Assembly: GCA_004294465.1 (NCBI GenBank)
Contig: REAV01000192.1
Coordinates: 1-11,359 of the forward strand
Length of the DNA: 11,359 nucleotides
Origin: Sphingobacteriia bacterium
GTDB lineage: Bacteria; Bacteroidota; Bacteroidia; Chitinophagales; Chitinophagaceae
Reading direction: 5' to 3'
The notes beneath the pieces are model-generated. The model had not been told where the DNA came from. It was given only the letters and a program-made list of their open reading frames with translations, and did no database searches. Shown piece after piece: positions 5,244-11,359 of this stretch. The position numbers and the translations under genes are program-made. Within the stretch, counting starts at the first letter, position 1, and every line of letters starts with the position of its first letter.

Positions 5244-5645
5244 TTAATTATAAGGTTGAATATGGCAAGGCTTTTGGGGCAAGGGCCCGCCCCCATCTTC
5301 GGAACGCTTACAAATAGGTGGTAGCTTTTTATAGGCTTCTGGCTCTGCTTTTTCGTCGTCGGCATCAAAGCCTGCATTGTTTAAAGCTGTTCGAATGGTG
5401 CTTTCATCCGTTCTATCTGGCCAGAATTGGACCTTAATCTCCCCTTGTAGTAAATTGATTTTCCACTGGATCATGCCTGATTCCATATTGGCCTTATTCT
5501 CTACAACCAAGTATTTTTCTAATCGCTCCTTGCATTCCCAGCATTTAAGATTCACTGATTTAATGGTTACCCATTGCTGTTTAGGCATTTGAGCCTTTCC
5601 AACTAGAACAAACAATATGCAAAGAGAAGTTAAGAAGCATTTCAT
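5244..5645 (-). CDS. secreted heavy-metal-associated (HMA) domain protein
   Basis: The ATG at 5645 gives 133 residues and places a clean signal peptide at the N-terminus (MKCFLT, hydrophobic core, cleavage after VGKA before Gln). A TTG three codons earlier is possible but unlikely. The mature protein has the ferredoxin-like layout of HMA domains: 'VTIKSVNLKCWECKERLEKYL', with a CxxC pair (CWEC) in the loop before helix 1, a strand 'GEIKVQFW', and the terminal 'ALNNAGFDAD' helix-turn that matches the family's A-x-x-x-A-G-[FY]-D-A. A proline/glycine-rich tail carries two more cysteines (PPICK and KPCH). By family it should bind a soft metal such as copper in the periplasm; which metal is unknown. 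Its leader runs directly into the heptamer array upstream. Confidence 0.7.
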   Translation of the reverse strand: MKCFLTSLCILFVLVGKAQMPKQQWVTIKSVNLKCWECKERLEKYLVVENKANMESGMIQWKINLLQGEIKVQFWPDRTDESTIRTALNNAGFDADDEKAEPEAYKKLPPICKRSEDGGGPLPQKPCHIQPYN

Positions 5646-5654
5646 GTTACACAA

Positions 5655-5772
5655 TTATCGGTTATTGGTCATTGGTTATTGGTTATTAGGATATTATATC
5701 TTTTATCTCTTATCTTTTATCTTTTATCTTTTATCTCTTATCTTTTATCTCTTATCTCTTATCTCTTATCTC
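5655..5772 (+). repeat. heptanucleotide tandem array A (TTATTGG then TTATCTY)
   Basis: Five 7-base units (TTATCGG, TTATTGG, TCATTGG, TTATTGG, TTATTAG) occupy 5655-5689. After a six-base junction (one base short of a unit) eleven TTATCTC/TTATCTT units fill 5696-5772; the first has A for T. The array takes up nearly all of the gap between pyrE and the HMA-domain gene. The TTA of the last unit (5766-5768) is the complement of the pyrE stop codon. The 7-base period resembles the short tandemly repeated repetitive (STRR) sequences of cyanobacteria; function unknown. Confidence 0.9.
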
Positions 5773-6395
5773 CCCCATTGTGCTGGGTCTTTACTCCAAT
5801 CCATTAACAGCGCTTTATTTTCAGGTGTAACAATCCCCTTTTCAACTGCCAATTCAATCATTGTTGCATAATCAGTTAAAGACCTAGTAACAACTCCTGC
5901 TTCATGAAAGGCTTTAATGGCATGGTCAAATCCATAAGTGAATATCGACACCATCCCCACTATTTCTACTTCAGCCTTTTTTAAAACTTCTACTACCTGT
6001 AAACTACTCTTACCTGTAGAAATGAGATCCTCGATTACCAAAACACGCTGCCCCTTTGAATAAGCACCTTCAATTTGGTTGCCCAAACCATGTTCTTTTG
6101 GTTTTGGTCGAACATACATGAAAGGCAACTTCAATTGATCTGCCGCCATTGCTCCCCAGGGAATGCCTGCAGTAGCAACACCGGCTAATGCCTCGGCATC
6201 TGGAAAATGTTCAAAAACAACATTGCAGAGTTCGCTTTTAATAAAGTCTCTCACATATGGGAAGGATAACACTTTTCTATTATCACAATAAATAGGGCTT
6301 TTCCAACCACTAGCCCATGTAAAAGGAGCACTAGGGCTTAGTTTGACCGCTTCTACTTGTAACAATTTTTCTGCTACTGCTTTTTCATTTGTCAT
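5766..6395 (-). CDS. pyrE: orotate phosphoribosyltransferase
   Basis: Converts orotate and PRPP to orotidine monophosphate and pyrophosphate in de novo UMP synthesis, in the cytoplasm. The 209-residue protein has the PRPP-binding motif VLVIEDLISTGKS at about 118-130 and the flexible catalytic loop RPKPKEHGLGNQIEG at about 96-110, both hallmarks of the family; length is typical. 'GVATAGIPWGAMAADQL' (72-88) fits the core sheet region. The ATG start lies 62 bases from the divergent Nudix ATG. A TACTTTCG box (6400-6407, minus), 7 of 8 to consensus, sits just ahead of the ATG, which would make the mRNA nearly leaderless; no -33 element supports it. The last Arg codon and stop codon fall inside heptamer array A. 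Confidence 0.95.
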   Translation of the reverse strand: MTNEKAVAEKLLQVEAVKLSPSAPFTWASGWKSPIYCDNRKVLSFPYVRDFIKSELCNVVFEHFPDAEALAGVATAGIPWGAMAADQLKLPFMYVRPKPKEHGLGNQIEGAYSKGQRVLVIEDLISTGKSSLQVVEVLKKAEVEIVGMVSIFTYGFDHAIKAFHEAGVVTRSLTDYATMIELAVEKGIVTPENKALLMDWSKDPAQWGR

Positions 6396-6415
6396 GCAAC
6401 GAAAGTAAAACCATT

Positions 6416-6445
6416 TTTGAATTGGAAAATGACAAAAATTATTTG
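6416..6445 (+). promoter_or_regulatory. candidate promoter for the Nudix gene
   Basis: TTTG (6416-6419) is followed after 18 bases by ATTATTTG (6438-6445). The TTTG half of the -7 box and the spacing are right, but the TA half does not match. The start of transcription would be near 6452, only a few bases before the ATG at 6458. Confidence 0.3.
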
Positions 6446-6457
6446 AGTTTTGATAAT

Positions 6458-6883
6458 ATGGATAAAAAGAGAATAATTGCAGCTGGAGGTTTGGTATTTA
6501 ATGAACAAAATGAATTACTCATGATCTTCAGACGTGGATTTTGGGACCTTCCTAAAGGAAAACTAGATTCAGGAGAAACCATTGAAGCTTGTGCAATTAG
6601 AGAAGTACAGGAAGAAACCGGTTTAACAAAAATTGAATTGGGGAAGTTTATCAAAATTACGCTTCATGAATATTTTGACCCATACTTGAAAGAAGATGTA
6701 ATCAAAGAAAGTCATTGGTACCATATGAAAGTAAAAGGCAATCCTCCATTAACGCCTCAAACAGAAGAAGATATTAGTTTAATTGAATGGGTTGGCGCAG
6801 ATGCACTTCCGAATTATTTAAAAAACACCTATGCTACTATTATTGATGTGATTGAGTTTTTTTCTTCATCACAGCAACTGTAA
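6458..6883 (+). CDS. Nudix hydrolase
   Basis: Hydrolyses a nucleoside diphosphate linked to another moiety; the substrate cannot be told from sequence. The 141-residue product has a complete Nudix box at residues 34-56: GKLDSGE, seven residues, then REVQEETGL, matching G-x5-E-x7-R-E-U-x-E-E-x-G-U. The preceding 'RRGFWDLPKGKLD' is typical of ADP-ribose/Ap4A-type and MutT-like members. I start it at the ATG 6458; a TTG at 6389 would extend it by 23 residues into the pyrE start region with no recognisable homology. It is divergent from pyrE and its 3' end overlaps the convergent thioesterase gene by 44 bases. Gene order pyrE-Nudix-coaD suggests housekeeping, not acquired, DNA. Confidence 0.85.
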   Translation: MDKKRIIAAGGLVFNEQNELLMIFRRGFWDLPKGKLDSGETIEACAIREVQEETGLTKIELGKFIKITLHEYFDPYLKEDVIKESHWYHMKVKGNPPLTPQTEEDISLIEWVGADALPNYLKNTYATIIDVIEFFSSSQQL

Positions 6884-7283
6884 TTCTACTAACACAAATG
6901 ATTCGTTCATGGTCATCATAAATTTTGATATCCCAAACTTGAGAACTCGAACCAATATGTATAGGCCTTGAAATACCAGTTACAAAACCACTTCTAACAC
7001 TCCTCAAATGATTGGCATTGATTTCTTGCCCTACACAAATAAATTCATTTAAATCAATCACCATTGCTGCACCAAAACTACCCAGGGTCTCTGCCAAAAC
7101 TAGTGATGCTCCTCCATGTAATAAACCAAAAGGCTGCTTGGTCCGATCGTCTACTGGCATTCGGGCTTTTAAAAAATCAGGGCCAATTTCTGTTAGTTCG
7201 ATACCTAAATGATTATCTAAAGTATTTCTCTGCATCCCTTCAAAATCGGCTAAGGAGATATTTTTTTTGAACCAAATATTCAT
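6840..7283 (-). CDS. hotdog-fold acyl-CoA thioesterase, YdiI/MenI-like
   Basis: A 147-residue single hotdog domain of the PaaI/YdiI group. It matches E. coli YdiI (1,4-dihydroxy-2-naphthoyl-CoA hydrolase of menaquinone synthesis) closely by eye: 'MPVDDRTKQPFGLLHGGASLVLAETLGS' (42-69), with His56-Gly-Gly and the likely catalytic Glu65, then 'EINANHLRSVRSG' and 'PIHIGSSSQVWDIKI'. Bacteroidota use menaquinone, which fits, but related enzymes act on other acyl-CoAs, so no gene symbol is given. Its start lies 14 bases after the coaD stop, so the two are probably co-transcribed. Its last 14 codons plus stop overlap the 3' end of the opposite-strand Nudix gene; the lysine- and glutamine-rich tail may be an extension past the domain. 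Confidence 0.85.
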   Translation of the reverse strand: MNIWFKKNISLADFEGMQRNTLDNHLGIELTEIGPDFLKARMPVDDRTKQPFGLLHGGASLVLAETLGSFGAAMVIDLNEFICVGQEINANHLRSVRSGFVTGISRPIHIGSSSQVWDIKIYDDHERIICVSRITVAVMKKKTQSHQ

Positions 7284-7297
7284 ATCGTTGCGATAAA

Positions 7298-7759
7298 TTA
7301 AAGCGAATTGATTACTGCCTGTGGCAAGAAAGGAGAAGCGTTTCCTCCATTTCGAATAATATCTCTAACAATAGTAGAAGCTACTGAAGTGTATTTTGGT
7401 TCTCCCGTTAAAAAAATGGTTTCGATATTACTATCCATTGTTCTATTGGCATCTGCAATTGTTTTTTCATATTCAAAATCACTCACGTATCGTATCCCTC
7501 TTAAAATAAATCGTGCCCCAATTTTTTCGCAAAAATGTACGGTCAATCCATCATAAATCACACTCTCTACTTTTGGCTCATCCTTGTATATTTGGTTAAA
7601 CCATTCCATTCTTTGTTCTGCACTAAACATTGGATTCTTAGATGAATTGATACCAATTCCAATATAAATTTTATCAAACAAAGGCAATGCTCTGTTAATA
7701 ATATCCGTATGACCCAAGGTTACTGGGTCAAAGGTTCCGGGAAATAAACAGATTCGCAT
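7298..7759 (-). CDS. coaD: pantetheine-phosphate adenylyltransferase
   Basis: Transfers AMP from ATP to 4'-phosphopantetheine to form dephospho-CoA, the penultimate step of CoA synthesis, in the cytoplasm. The 153-residue protein is of normal length. It shows the nucleotidyltransferase motif GTFDPVTLGH at 8-17 (TxGH at 14-17), RGIRYVSDFEYE at 87-98, and VASTIVRD at 126-133, corresponding to the family's ISSTxVR. The ATG start directly follows heptamer array B: only four bases separate the last repeat unit from it, so the region where a ribosome would bind is the repeat itself. pyrB lies 76 bases upstream on the same strand and the thioesterase gene 14 bases downstream. Confidence 0.95.
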   Translation of the reverse strand: MRICLFPGTFDPVTLGHTDIINRALPLFDKIYIGIGINSSKNPMFSAEQRMEWFNQIYKDEPKVESVIYDGLTVHFCEKIGARFILRGIRYVSDFEYEKTIADANRTMDSNIETIFLTGEPKYTSVASTIVRDIIRNGGNASPFLPQAVINSL

Positions 7760-7763
7760 TGGG

Positions 7764-7849
7764 AGTTATGAGTTATGAATTATGAGTTATGAATTATGAA
7801 TTATGAGATACAATTTTTGAATGATGAGTTTTCAATTATTGGTTATCGT
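7764..7849 (+). repeat. heptanucleotide array B (TTATGAR), running into pyrB
   Basis: Six clean units of ARTTATG occupy 7764-7805, equivalently TTATGAG/TTATGAA read two bases later. From 7801 on, the 7-base phase can be followed through degenerate units (ATACAAT, TTTTGAA, TGATGAG, TTTTCAA) to two units at 7836-7849, TTATTGG and TTATCGT, which match units of array A. The TTA at 7836 is the complement of the pyrB stop codon and the two units encode the protein's last residues. The array fills the whole pyrB-coaD gap. Confidence 0.8.
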
Positions 7850-8768
7850 CTCGGCCTGCTAATAAATACAATACCGCCATTCTCACTGCTACCCCATTTT
7901 CTACTTGATTTAAAATGATAGAGCTTTTTCCATCAGCCACATCACTATCTAATTCTACCCCTCTATTAATTGGGCCTGGGTGCATAATCACTATTTCTTT
8001 GCCAAGACTATCTAAATTACTTCGCTTTATACCATATGCCAAATTATACTCCCTAAGTGAAGAAAACAGTGGCTGGTTTTGTCTTTCTAATTGTATTCTT
8101 AAAACGTTGGCAACATCGCACCATTTCAATGCCTCTTGAAGATTATAAGTAACTCTTACACCCAATGCTTCTCCAATATAAGTAGGAATTAAAGTTGGTG
8201 GGCCAACCACCAATACTTCAGCACCCATTTTCTTCAATAAATATAGATTGCTCAACGCAACCCTGCTATGCATGATGTCACCAATAATAGCCACTTTAAG
8301 GCCTTCGATCCTGCCCAGTTTTTCTTTCATTGAAAAAGCATCGAGCAAGGCTTGCGTAGGATGTTCATTAATGCCATCTCCAGCATTAACAATGGCAGCG
8401 GGAATATGTTTGGCCAGAAAATGGGGAGCTCCAGAAGCACTATGCCTCATCACCACCATATCCACTTTCATGCTCAGAATATTGTTTACCGTGTCGAGTA
8501 AGGTTTCTCCCTTTGCTGCAGATGAACTGCTTGCTGCAAAATTGAGCACATCGGCAGAGAGTCTTTTTTCGGCCAGTTCAAATGACATTCGGGTTCTGGT
8601 AGAATTCTCATAGAACAAATTCACAATAGTAATATCCCTTAGAGAGGGTACTTTTTTTACAGGTCTTTGTAATACTTCTTTGAATTGTTCGGCAGTGGAT
8701 AAAATGAGATTAATGTCCTCCTTAGAGAGATCCTTAATACCAAGTAAGTGTTTGGTAGATAGTTTCAT
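7836..8768 (-). CDS. pyrB: aspartate carbamoyltransferase catalytic subunit
   Basis: Condenses carbamoyl phosphate with aspartate to N-carbamoylaspartate, the second step of pyrimidine synthesis. The 310-residue protein carries the carbamoyl-phosphate loop FYENSTRTR at 52-60, the SSSAAKGE loop at 81-88 that supplies a catalytic lysine, HPTQALLD at 136-143 and HPGPINRG at 263-270. No regulatory subunit gene (pyrI) is adjacent, so control is more likely through PyrR, whose gene lies 26 bases upstream in the same direction. The last residues (DDNQ) and the stop codon coincide with heptamer units of array B, so the very C-terminus may have been rewritten by the repeat; the catalytic parts are far from it and intact. 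Confidence 0.97.
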   Translation of the reverse strand: MKLSTKHLLGIKDLSKEDINLILSTAEQFKEVLQRPVKKVPSLRDITIVNLFYENSTRTRMSFELAEKRLSADVLNFAASSSSAAKGETLLDTVNNILSMKVDMVVMRHSASGAPHFLAKHIPAAIVNAGDGINEHPTQALLDAFSMKEKLGRIEGLKVAIIGDIMHSRVALSNLYLLKKMGAEVLVVGPPTLIPTYIGEALGVRVTYNLQEALKWCDVANVLRIQLERQNQPLFSSLREYNLAYGIKRSNLDSLGKEIVIMHPGPINRGVELDSDVADGKSSIILNQVENGVAVRMAVLYLLAGRDDNQ

Positions 8769-8794
8769 TAAAAATCAAAGCTAATCAAATAATT

Positions 8795-9316
8795 TTATAC
8801 AATAACCACTTCATCTTTTTCAGCAGTTTCAGCCCAGTTTACTTTTACCTTATCTGATACGATTGTATCAATTGCTTTGCCTGAAAAATCGGGCTGAATA
8901 GGTAATTCTCTACTAAACCTTCTGTCTATTAAAACACAAAGTGAAACTTTTGAAGGTCTCCCAAAATCCAATAATGCATCCAACGCTGCCCTAATTGTTC
9001 TACCCGTATACAACACATCATCAATCAACACCACTTTTTTCCCTTCAATACTAAAAGGAATTTCGGTAGCATTGGCTATATGGAGCGCTTTTCTAACATC
9101 ATCCCTATAAAAAGTAATATCCAATTTTCCGTATTTAATGGGCAAAGCTGGGGTCATCTGTTTCAATTCATCAACAATTCGATCACTTAAAAAGACGCCT
9201 CTTGGTTGTAATCCAATTATAACCGTATCTATTAAGCCCTGATTATTCTCTACAATCTGGTGAGCAAGCCGCTTAACGGTAAGTGCTATTTGCTGTTCAG
9301 AAAGAATGGTCTTCAC
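8795..9316 (-). CDS. pyrR: pyr regulator / uracil phosphoribosyltransferase
   Basis: In Firmicutes PyrR binds leader mRNA of pyr genes in response to UMP/UTP and has weak uracil phosphoribosyltransferase activity. The 173-residue protein shows the PRPP motif VVLIDDVLYTGRT at 95-107, 'IIGLQPRGVFLSDRI' at 33-47, and 'DITFYRDD' at 66-73, all typical. The start codon is GTG. It is the first gene of a pyrR-pyrB transcript. Its leader has a minus-strand TTTG (9351-9354) followed 21 bases later by TAAAATTT (9322-9329), a weak promoter candidate, and a short inverted repeat TGGCT/AGCCA, but no sequence like the Firmicutes PyrR-binding loop. Whether it acts on RNA in this lineage is therefore open. 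Confidence 0.93.
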   Translation of the reverse strand: MKTILSEQQIALTVKRLAHQIVENNQGLIDTVIIGLQPRGVFLSDRIVDELKQMTPALPIKYGKLDITFYRDDVRKALHIANATEIPFSIEGKKVVLIDDVLYTGRTIRAALDALLDFGRPSKVSLCVLIDRRFSRELPIQPDFSGKAIDTIVSDKVKVNWAETAEKDEVVIV

Positions 9317-9382
9317 TCGATAAATTTTATTAAAAATAATGGCTTTCTTTCAAATCAGCCAATTTATTCACGTGGTTCTTTA

Positions 9383-9390
9383 TTACTTTG
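9383..9390 (+). promoter_or_regulatory. candidate -7 box of recF
   Basis: TTACTTTG matches 7 of 8 positions of TAnnTTTG and ends six bases before the recF ATG at 9397. No TTTG/TTG is found at the normal -33 spacing. The TTG of this box could be mistaken for a start codon in the recF frame. Confidence 0.3.
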
Positions 9391-9396
9391 CGAACC

Positions 9397-10476
9397 ATGC
9401 TCCAAATTAAAGAACTTGAACTGATACAATTCAGGAATTACCATCAACAAAAATGGGCATTCCAAGATAGAATCGTTTGCATTGGTGGATTGAATGGGGT
9501 GGGAAAAACCAATTTATTGGATGCTATTTATTATTTAGGATTTTCGAAAAGCTATTTTTCGAGAACCGATGCCCAAAATGTTCAACATGGCCAATTGGGT
9601 ATGCGATTATCAGGCAATTATTTATTGCAAAAAGAAAGCAACAATATCACCTGTATTTTAAGAGAGAACAATCGAAAAGAATTAACCGTAAACAATGAAC
9701 TCATCAAAAAAATGTCTGACCATGTAGGAAAATTTCCTTGTGTGATGATTGCTCCTGATGATGTAGAATTAATAAGTGGAAGTGGTGAAGGAAGAAGAAA
9801 AATGATTGACACCATTTTATCTCAAACAGATCGGGAATACTTGGTTCAATTAATGGATTATACAAAAGTATTGCAGCAAAGAAATAGTTTATTCAAACAA
9901 GCTGAAAACAATACCATTGATCAGGAATTGTTAGAAGTGTTCAATAATCAATTAATCAAAGCGGGCAACTATATTTTCAATAGTAGAACAATATTTTTGA
10001 AAGATTTTATTCCTTCAGTCATTAGTTTATATACAGCAATAGCAGGTAAATCGGATGAACTTGGCTTAGAATACCAAAGTGAATTGACATCAAATTCTTT
10101 TGAAACATTACTGAAAAATAGTTTCCAGAAAGACCTTATCCTTCAAAGAACTACTAAGGGAATACACAGAGATGAGTTGAGTATTTTGCTCAACCAATTT
10201 GCATTTAAATCAGAAGCATCACAGGGTCAACGCAAAAGTTTATTATTCGCACTAAAATTAGCTGAATGGGACTTTCTCGCTAAGAAAATCGGCTACGGTC
10301 CTATTTTATTACTTGATGATGTATTTGAAAAATTAGATGAAAAAAGGATGTACCAATTATTAGAACGCGTTTGCAGTGACCATTATGGCCAGGTATTTAT
10401 TACAGATACCCATGTAGACAGGCTTCAAAAACAATTAAAGCAAACCGGTCAATCATTTCAACTGATAGAATTATAA
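9397..10476 (+). CDS. recF: DNA replication and repair protein RecF
   Basis: SMC-like ATPase that helps load RecA at single-strand gaps, with RecO and RecR. The ATG at 9397 gives 359 residues, the usual family length, and the family's N-terminal pattern 'L-x-L-x-x-F-R-N-Y'. A TTG three codons upstream is less likely because it sits in a promoter-like box. Walker A is GLNGVGKT at 31-38, the ABC-type signature SQGQRKSLLFALKLAEW starts near 275, and Walker B plus D-loop is ILLLDDVFEKLD at 303-314. Divergent from pyrR and 20 bases ahead of the DUF721 gene, with which it is probably co-transcribed. Confidence 0.95.
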   Translation: MLQIKELELIQFRNYHQQKWAFQDRIVCIGGLNGVGKTNLLDAIYYLGFSKSYFSRTDAQNVQHGQLGMRLSGNYLLQKESNNITCILRENNRKELTVNNELIKKMSDHVGKFPCVMIAPDDVELISGSGEGRRKMIDTILSQTDREYLVQLMDYTKVLQQRNSLFKQAENNTIDQELLEVFNNQLIKAGNYIFNSRTIFLKDFIPSVISLYTAIAGKSDELGLEYQSELTSNSFETLLKNSFQKDLILQRTTKGIHRDELSILLNQFAFKSEASQGQRKSLLFALKLAEWDFLAKKIGYGPILLLDDVFEKLDEKRMYQLLERVCSDHYGQVFITDTHVDRLQKQLKQTGQSFQLIEL

Positions 10477-10496
10477 AATAGACCTAACTTTACATT

Positions 10497-10778
10497 ATGG
10501 CCGAAATGCATATTGGTGACGCATTAAAAGGATTTATTCGAAAGAGTAATTTAAAGAACGGAATCAGGGCCGTTCAGATAGAAGAAGTATGGGGCAAATT
10601 AATGGGAAAGACCATTGCTAAATACACTGAAAAAGTGCAGATCATCAATAAAAAATTGTTCATTCATACCAATATTGGTCCTTTAAAAAATGAATTGCAA
10701 TTTCAAAAACCACAAATCATTGCGCGTGTAAATGAACTTTTTGGAGAAGAAGTGATAACAGAGGTTATTATCCAGTAA
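10497..10778 (+). CDS. DUF721 / DciA-like protein
   Basis: A 93-residue small protein of the DUF721 family, part of which is DciA, a loader or partner of the replicative helicase in many bacteria lacking DnaC. Visible features are 'IGDALKGFIRKSNLKNGI' followed by 'VQIEEVWGKLMGKTIAKYT' (the family's V-x-x-x-W-x-x-x-V-G pattern) and a strand-rich second half with 'LFIHTNIGPLKNELQFQK', matching L-x-V-x-x-x-S-x-W-x-x-E-L. This short form lacks a long extra domain. Adjacent to recF, which fits a DNA-replication role; the helicase role is inferred from the family, not shown here. Confidence 0.8.
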   Translation: MAEMHIGDALKGFIRKSNLKNGIRAVQIEEVWGKLMGKTIAKYTEKVQIINKKLFIHTNIGPLKNELQFQKPQIIARVNELFGEEVITEVIIQ

Positions 10779-10781
10779 CTG

Positions 10782-10844
10782 TAATCTTTTATCTTTTATC
10801 TCATATCTTTTATCTCTTAATTCATAATTCCTAATTGGTGATTA
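10782..10844 (+). repeat. heptanucleotide array C (TTATCTY plus TTAATTC-type units)
   Basis: Nine consecutive 7-base steps in unbroken phase: TAATCTT, TTATCTT, TTATCTC, ATATCTT, TTATCTC, TTAATTC, ATAATTC, CTAATTG, GTGATTA. The first five are the unit of array A; the later ones contain TTCATAA, the reverse complement of the array B unit TTATGAA. It fills the convergent gap between the DUF721 gene and the DoxX-type gene and overlaps the latter's last codons and stop (10831-10833). Confidence 0.8.
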
Positions 10845-11359
10845 GTTCTGCTGTGTCAAGATAACTTCGCTTATCAAGTATTGTAGCTCCTTTCATTAGG
10901 AAGAATGTAGGCTTAACTCTCGCTGCAGTTTTAATAACTGTTGCATCGCAGCTTAATACCGTATATGCAGGAAAGGCTTCTTTTATTCTTGCAGCTTCAG
11001 CAGAAACGAGATAAACTGGTATTGATTTTTTTTCAACTCCAGCCAATATTTTCAGCATTGCATTTTGCCATTTATTAATGTTAACTGCATCTTGAATAAA
11101 TACCAATAAGTATTCTCCTGGTTGCTGAAAGATGGCTCCTGTTGTATCGGTTTGATTGATCGTTAATAAAGAAAAATCTACAATAGCAGGCTTCAAACCA
11201 TTACCCGATTTTACCAATTGATCTTTTCGATCGACGTATAAATAGGTGGAATCAAAGTCTTCAGGGAAATGCTCCTGATCAAACTGCAATTGCTTACCAT
11301 TTTTTTGATAAATAAATTGAATGGAGAAACTATCCAAAGTTGCTCCTTCAGGCATTTTC
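10831..11359 (-). CDS. DoxX-family (BT_3928-like) protein, C-terminal part (partial)
   Basis: The reading frame continues past the right edge, so only the last ~176 residues are seen; the Met at 11353-11355 is internal (Lys precedes it). In Bacteroidota a known architecture is an N-terminal four-helix DoxX membrane domain followed by a thioredoxin-like region. The visible part fits the latter: 'KMPEGATLDSFSIQFIYQKNG' (joining segment), 'STYLYVDRKDQLVKSGN', 'PGEYLLVFIQD', and 'VKPTFFLMKGATILDKRS', the last like the cis-proline end of a thioredoxin fold. No CxxC is present, so redox activity of this half is doubtful. The C-terminal ITN and stop lie in the heptamer array. Assignment is by resemblance to the family; the DoxX half itself is not visible. 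Confidence 0.6.
   Translation of the reverse strand, partial: KMPEGATLDSFSIQFIYQKNGKQLQFDQEHFPEDFDSTYLYVDRKDQLVKSGNGLKPAIVDFSLLTINQTDTTGAIFQQPGEYLLVFIQDAVNINKWQNAMLKILAGVEKKSIPVYLVSAEAARIKEAFPAYTVLSCDATVIKTAARVKPTFFLMKGATILDKRSYLDTAELITN

What the first reader, a model, noticed from the sequence alone, without database searches (positions are those of the whole stretch)
5655..10844. Three heptamer arrays each supply the stop codon of a minus-strand gene, at the same unit position
In the phase set by each array, the complement of the stop codon is bases 1-3 of a unit in all three cases: TTA of TTATCTC (5766) for pyrE, TTA of TTATTGG (7836) for pyrB, and CTA of CTAATTG (10831) for the DoxX-type gene. 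The three unit families differ in their last three bases but share TTAT. All three flush genes are on the minus strand, where TTAT reads ATAA. Such precise junctions suggest that arrays arise or insert at stop codons, or are seeded by them, and may be a gene-end device such as a stop cassette, transcript 3' element or protein-binding platform.
Basis: partly seen in the sequence, partly recalled or inferred. Interest (0 to 1): 0.72.

Follow-up and report, generated by a model that had tools for sequence, protein, structure and literature searches.

The report
Polar seven-base arrays at gene ends
Between some genes this bacterium carries runs of a seven-letter DNA repeat that mostly begin right where a gene stops and point away from it, a pattern reported for other repeat units in other bacteria and not yet explained.

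Summary
The arrays are real and all three stops are in array phase, but only pyrE's lies in a clean unit. The shared unit position is mostly forced: RAGATAA (gene sense) holds one stop triplet, TAA, so any frame entering the array stops there within 21 nt. The hunch behind it, arrays tied to gene 3' ends, holds beyond the window. In this genome the G-containing strand begins within 10 nt of a stop in 22 of 22 arrays whose 5' side faces a well-supported gene end, against 2 of 14 for its other end; pooled with six more genomes and 80 named loci, 86/111 against 5/67. In convergent spacers the G-strand 5' end is the nearer one in 21 of 21 arrays. Random insertion plus removal of coding damage predicts less. 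Four genes compared with array-free orthologues keep their ends, so no stop cassette is needed. Chryseobacterium loci (1 of 15) and start-flush arrays are exceptions. The same polarity is published for quadruplex-forming heptamers of Xanthomonas and Nostoc; RAGATAA has no GG run. The mechanism is unproven; I favour slippage growth in purine-rich untranslated transcript behind stops.

The parts
5655..5687 (+). Array 1a, TTATTGG family; its G-strand 5' end faces the start codon (5643-5645) of the 5244-5645 gene, 9 nt away
5691..5772 (-). Array 1b, GAGATAA/AAGATAA in gene sense, beginning at the pyrE stop
5766..5768 (-). pyrE stop codon TAA, inside the first unit of array 1b
   Evidence: orthologues end within 3 codons
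5766..6395 (-). pyrE-like gene (phosphoribosyltransferase domain)
   Evidence: Pfam PF00156; orthologues
7763..7807 (+). Array 2, GAGTTAT/GAATTAT; G-strand 5' end 3 nt from the start codon (7757-7759) of the coaD-like gene; far end followed by GATACA
   Evidence: Pfam PF01467 for the gene
7836..7849 (-). Degenerate TTATTGG-like units holding the pyrB stop (complement TTA 7836-7838), about 29 nt beyond the tidy array
7836..8768 (-). pyrB-like gene (aspartate/ornithine carbamoyltransferase domains)
   Evidence: Pfam PF02729, PF00185; orthologues
10784..10836 (-). Array 3, AGATAAA units turning into AATTATG/AATTAGG towards the gene, between two convergent stops
10831..10833 (-). Stop codon TAG of the 10831-11355 gene, in a degenerate unit
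10497..10778 (+). DciA-like gene whose stop lies 5 nt from the far edge of array 3
   Evidence: Pfam PF05258

Best explanation
The stretches belong to a genome-wide set of heptamer simple-sequence arrays with fixed polarity: the strand that carries G begins at a gene boundary, mostly just after a stop codon, and runs away from the gene. SHOWN: the period of 7; the stop-linked polarity; its presence with several unit families and in other genomes; gene ends unchanged in the four genes compared; single arrays of this genome mostly unfolded. INFERRED: the arrays grow by 7-nt slippage. They build up next to stops because that is the first place where the transcript leaves the ribosome, and where a purine-rich RNA can stay paired with its pyrimidine template, favouring slippage in one orientation. 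Selection then removes arrays that would put an open hydrophobic reading frame (TTATCTY has no stop in any frame) behind a gene, or spurious ATG triplets in front of one. The stop codon lying on a unit's TAA is a by-product, since any frame that enters the array ends at TAA. I hold the descriptive part at about 0.85 and the transcription-linked growth step at about 0.35.
For: G-strand 5' end within 10 nt of a stop, against its 3' end, boundary genes of at least 100 aa: this genome 22/22 v 2/14; G034+G013+G026 15/17 v 0/6; G059+G068+G030 4/7 v 2/15; GTDB loci 45/65 v 1/32; all 204 arrays 86/111 v 5/67. Arrays lying outside the gene (0-10 nt): 26 v 2, where the null gives equal numbers, so stop supply alone does not set orientation. 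Convergent spacers: 5' end nearer in 21/21 arrays (17 spacers), flush in 17, uniform placement predicts 6.5. Stop-flush arrays are purine-rich in gene sense in 85 of 93; start-flush arrays are not, 17 of 39. Null of random insertion plus coding purge: 14-24% of arrays at a stop against 18 of 21. Orthologue ends. In co-directional spacers start-flush arrays are antisense 8 v 1 where the G strand holds ATG and 5 v 10 where it does not.
Against: No transcript data, no strain comparison, no direct evidence of R-loops or slippage. Arrays of one genome share the same unit, which independent slippage at each gene end does not predict; GATACA recurs at the far end of 10 of 33 arrays (0.36 expected), which looks like copying. 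In Chryseobacterium-labelled loci 1 of 15 arrays has its 5' end at a stop (2 of the 15 are at a locus edge). In co-directional spacers the families with ATG in the G strand show no stop polarity (sense 4, antisense 4). Arrays with TAA in the C strand keep the polarity (12/14 v 1/9 and 6/9 v 2/12), so a TAA-based translation filter is at best part of it. The gene finder is home-made; arrays in one spacer or genome are not independent, so the P values are optimistic.
Confidence: 0.45

Rival explanations
1. A selected 3'-end element: the purine-rich, C-free RNA behind the stop (or the hairpin that two facing arrays make) is bound by a protein or sets the mRNA 3' end, so the arrays are kept in sense orientation at stops.
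For: Sense orientation and proximity to stops. Five facing-pair spacers (L031, L034, L046, L048, L051) fold far better than shuffles, z -4.9 to -8.3.
Against: In this genome 23 of 29 folded array spacers have z above -2.5, the three of the window among them. No terminator-like site at the window's arrays and no Rfam match in the window. Sporadic: 7 of 48 same-genus genomes have any pattern hit, and the orthologous genes in relatives do without.
Confidence: 0.2
2. A dispersed element with a defined far end (GATACA here) that is copied into gene ends by an unknown transposase or reverse-transcriptase-like activity.
For: The same alternating AAGATAA/GAGATAA unit at many loci; GATACA at 10 of 33 far ends; facing pairs; conserved flank next to many Chryseobacterium arrays.
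Against: No RVT_1 and no Y1_Tnp match in this genome, though it is only 70.6% complete and other enzymes were not sought. No target duplications were looked for. Array lengths vary unit by unit.
Confidence: 0.2
3. Neutral insertion or growth anywhere in spacers, with purging of whatever harms coding or the next gene's leader; nothing special about gene ends.
For: Spacers are short (87 array-free spacers, median 56 nt; orthologous spacers at pyrE and pyrB are often a few tens of nt). The G strand supplies stops, the other strand of RAGATAA none.
Against: Simulation of this model gives 14-24% of arrays at a stop, and 36-42% of those with a stop on the 5' side, against 18 of 21 and 18 of 18. It predicts equal numbers for arrays outside the gene, seen 26 v 2. 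Convergent spacers contradict it.
Confidence: 0.1
4. One reading: arrays arise from, or are inserted as, stop codons and serve as stop cassettes.
For: Stops in phase in the window and in 30 of 57 stop-flush RAGATAA arrays, 8 expected at 1 in 7.
Against: Phase is forced when a frame enters the array; 27 of 57 are out of phase; TAG and TGA stops outside the unit occur; orthologues have their own stops at the same place.
Confidence: 0.05

Closest known systems
GGGAATC / GGGGA(C/T)T heptamer repeats of Xanthomonas and Nostoc (Rehm et al. 2015, PMC4692102; abstract and sections 13, 14, 16 read)
   Same: Heptamers spread in spacers; [quoted passage not shown] some overlap the stop; inverted pairs occur; variable copy number; no function found.
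   Different: Those units are quadruplex-forming with a preference for four copies. RAGATAA and GARTTAT have no GG run, the bacteria are other phyla, and arrays here lie within about 10 nt of the stop.
TAACTGA direct repeats of Beggiatoaceae, Cyanobacteria and a few Bacteroidetes (MacGregor 2015, PMC4679880; abstract and sections 3, 9, 10, 24 read)
   Same: Intergenic heptamers with sporadic distribution; the paper notes that a TAA-bearing orientation can overlap a gene end by 18 nt at most, the same constraint as here; long arrays in some Bacteroidetes.
   Different: There most sets lie just upstream of start codons; unit differs; the main class here lies behind stops.
Prokaryotic satellites derived from heptamers, such as (GATAGRA)n in Chloroflexus (Subirana and Messeguer 2019, PMC6749651; passages seen)
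   Same: A family of purine-rich heptamer arrays.
   Different: The passages seen do not give position or polarity relative to genes.
Long simple sequence repeats, heptanucleotide class (Mrazek et al. 2007; not held, known here only through PMC4679880 and PMC4692102)
   Same: Excess of period 7 and slippage as the proposed cause.
   Different: Gene-end polarity not described in what I saw of it.

Membership tests
Heptanucleotide long simple sequence repeats | Tandem units of 7 nt beyond chance, other periods rare | tested here: met
   31 arrays of period 7, 9 of period 14, 1 of period 4, none at the other periods 5-15 in 192 kb
Heptanucleotide long simple sequence repeats | Length change by slippage between strains | not testable with these tools
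   No second strain of this species was available; relatives have no array at the loci compared
Xanthomonas/Nostoc polar G-rich heptamers | G strand in sense close behind stops | tested here: met
   22/22 v 2/14 in this genome, 86/111 v 5/67 pooled
Xanthomonas/Nostoc polar G-rich heptamers | G strand antisense close before starts | tested here: inconclusive
   5/7 v 1/12 here and 11/17 v 0/5 in G059+G068+G030, but 6/24 v 13/48 in the GTDB loci
Xanthomonas/Nostoc polar G-rich heptamers | G-tracts able to form quadruplexes | tested here: not met
   RAGATAA and GARTTAT units hold no GG; TTATTGG units do hold GG
TAACTGA repeats | Unit TAACTGA just upstream of start codons | tested here: not met
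   Units differ; most arrays lie at stops
Intrinsic terminator | GC-rich hairpin followed by T run | tested here: not met
   Window arrays unfolded and no terminator-like site at them
REP/REPIN with RAYT | Palindromic element with a Y1 transposase in the genome | tested here: not met
   No Y1_Tnp match in this 70.6% complete genome; single arrays are not palindromic

The most novel reading that the evidence does not exclude
A general polar process, linked to transcription past stop codons, writes lineage-specific purine-rich heptamer arrays directly behind genes in several phyla, independent of G-quadruplexes, so that arrays mark where ribosomes release the transcript.
Probability: 0.25. Interest if true: 0.8.

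Novelty: new variant of a known kind. Interest (0 to 1): 0.52.

Why it matters
Heptamer arrays have been put down to polymerase slippage or to quadruplexes. A polarity that follows gene ends, kept by units without GG runs and seen in several lineages, shows that neither account is complete, and makes the question testable by orientation-swapped reporters in an ordinary laboratory strain. It also warns that 'stop codon inside a repeat' can follow from the unit alone.

Tried and rejected
Rejected: the 1-in-7 phase argument (the unit has a single stop triplet). Rejected: arrays truncate genes. Rejected for the window: intrinsic terminator or known RNA family. Tried without support: reverse transcriptase and Y1 transposase families (48 genomes each, of the array-bearing genomes only G000, G013, G026 and G059 among them). 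Considered: end-healing of breaks by repeat addition, which would also give facing pairs; synteny around pyrE and pyrB is kept in several relatives (by eye) and nothing tested it further. A first gene finder was too weak and was replaced. Artefact check: spurious short ORFs would end in arrays by themselves, so counts were repeated with boundary genes of at least 100 and 150 aa. Dropped rows: 12 arrays of ambiguous strand and 3 inside genes. G030 was left out. The reversed-pattern control is not clean in some relatives (up to 49 hits), because other heptamer families match it. Nothing matching the stop-linked polarity of RAGATAA-like units in print was found in searches, beyond the papers named.
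Full report
1. What is there. The three arrays exist as described in outline. Array 1 is clean and takes in the pyrE stop. The pyrB stop lies about 29 nt outside the tidy part of array 2, on degenerate TTATTGG-like units, and the third stop (TAG) is in a degenerate unit. All are in phase. The other edge of each array also lies close to a gene: 9 nt from an ATG, 3 nt from the coaD ATG, 5 nt from the DciA stop.

2. Why the phase says little. In gene sense the unit is RAGATAA, and the only stop triplet in an array of it is TAA, once per 7 nt. As 7 and 3 share no factor, every frame that enters the array meets TAA within 21 nt, at the same unit position. The other strand, TTATCTY, has no stop in any frame. 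MacGregor 2015 makes the same point for TAACTGA (section 9). Of 57 stop-flush RAGATAA arrays 30 are in that phase and 27 are not, and 18 of the stops are TAG or TGA.

3. Genome scan. The genome (233 contigs, 70.6% complete, unnamed) has 111 pattern hits against 1 for the reversed pattern. Of 48 same-genus genomes 7 have any hit (G005, G013, G024, G026, G030, G034, G045), with different favoured units such as TTATCAA in G013 and TTATAGG in G030; so the trait is sporadic. Period 7 stands alone apart from its multiple 14 and one array of period 4.

4. Position and polarity. With a home-made gene finder each array was oriented by the strand that holds more G. In this genome the 5' end of that strand lies within 10 nt of a stop in 22 of 22 arrays whose 5' side faces a stop of a gene of at least 100 aa; the 3' end does so in 2 of 14 (20/20 and 2/12 without the window contig). 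G034, G013 and G026 give 15/17 and 0/6; G059, G068 and G030 give 4/7 and 2/15; the 80 GTDB loci give 45/65 and 1/32. Arrays wholly outside the gene, where no stop has to be supplied, give 26 against 2. In convergent spacers, which hold no promoter or leader, the 5' end is nearer in 21 of 21 arrays from 17 spacers and flush in 17; uniform placement predicts 6.5, and none of 20,000 draws reached 17.

5. Start codons. In this genome 5 of 7 arrays with a start on the 5' side lie within 10 nt of it, against 1 of 12 at the other end; in G059, G068 and G030 11/17 against 0/5; but in the GTDB loci 6/24 against 13/48. In co-directional spacers the antisense preference at starts appears where the G strand holds ATG (8 against 1) and not otherwise (5 against 10); the same ATG-bearing families show no stop polarity there (4 and 4). 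Stop-flush arrays are purine-rich in sense in 85 of 93, start-flush arrays in 17 of 39. The stop-linked polarity is thus the stronger one.

6. Nulls. Random insertion of RAGATAA arrays in either orientation into 87 array-free spacers, accepted only if coding ends change by 7 codons or less and a leader of 0, 30 or 60 nt is kept, puts 14, 19 or 24% of arrays with the 5' end at a stop, and 36, 40 or 42% of those whose 5' side faces a stop. Seen: 18 of 21 and 18 of 18. The P values treat arrays as independent, which they are not fully.

7. Gene ends in relatives. For pyrE, 28 of 29 relatives' loci show the gene end (one is cut by its contig) and all 28 end within 3 codons of the window's end; for pyrB 29 of 29. 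The gene in L043 ends at the same residue in 13 of 13 relatives. For the gene in L031 the 9 relatives of at least 77% identity with an uncut end stop within 2 codons; one is cut by its contig, and one of 41% identity ends earlier. No array is seen in the stretch behind the stop printed for these relatives (107-147 nt). So arrays begin at the ancestral end of the gene.

8. Structure. Of 29 array spacers 23 fold no better than shuffles at z -2.5, including the three of the window. Five facing pairs (L031, L034, L046, L048, L051) reach z -4.9 to -8.3 and L040 -3.2. The far end of 10 of 33 arrays reads GATACA, 0.36 expected.

9. Elsewhere. A scan of GTDB genomes for four RAGATAA units gave at least 114 stretches in Bacteroidales and other Bacteroidetes MAGs, Chryseobacterium, Ruminococcus and other Clostridia, Vibrio relatives and others. 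Chryseobacterium differs: 1 of 15 arrays is stop-flush, and many share a conserved flank.

10. Reading. This is a polar heptamer repeat of the kind Rehm et al. described in Xanthomonas and Nostoc, here with a main unit that has no GG run, in other phyla and tighter to the stop. My favoured cause, transcription-linked slippage behind stops plus a translation filter, is inference. The shared unit and the GATACA end are its main difficulties, and they speak for a copied element.

Noticed in passing
L171, L175, L180, L182, L185, L191, L199, L209, L210, L246 (Chryseobacterium loci): The 3' end of the AAAAGAT array is followed by a similar stretch (cttgtYRYtaaa ... tgggctttagcc) in most of these loci, as if the array were one end of a dispersed element.
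   Followed up: partly
L233, L240, L245 (Ruminococcus-labelled loci): Heptamer arrays end at GC-rich palindromic stretches of the type gtgtccgctttgcggac or tatcgccttcggcg.
   Followed up: no
L161 4555-4707 and L162 1-84 (G068): A stop is followed by ACAAGAC units, a perfect short palindrome and AATAACC units up to the contig end; another contig starts with AATAACC units before a start codon. The two may be neighbours.
   Followed up: no
L031, L034, L046, L048, L051 spacers of G000: Two arrays face each other with GATACA and TGTATC (or GATAC and GTATC) at or near the centre and fold into long hairpins.
   Followed up: partly
window 10831-11355: The gene called DoxX-type has no Pfam match; it begins 4 bases from the contig end and is probably cut.
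   Followed up: partly
L033, L036, L044, L051 (G000): Arrays lie at or within 30 bases of contig ends, so assembly breaks at them and the true number is probably higher.
   Followed up: no
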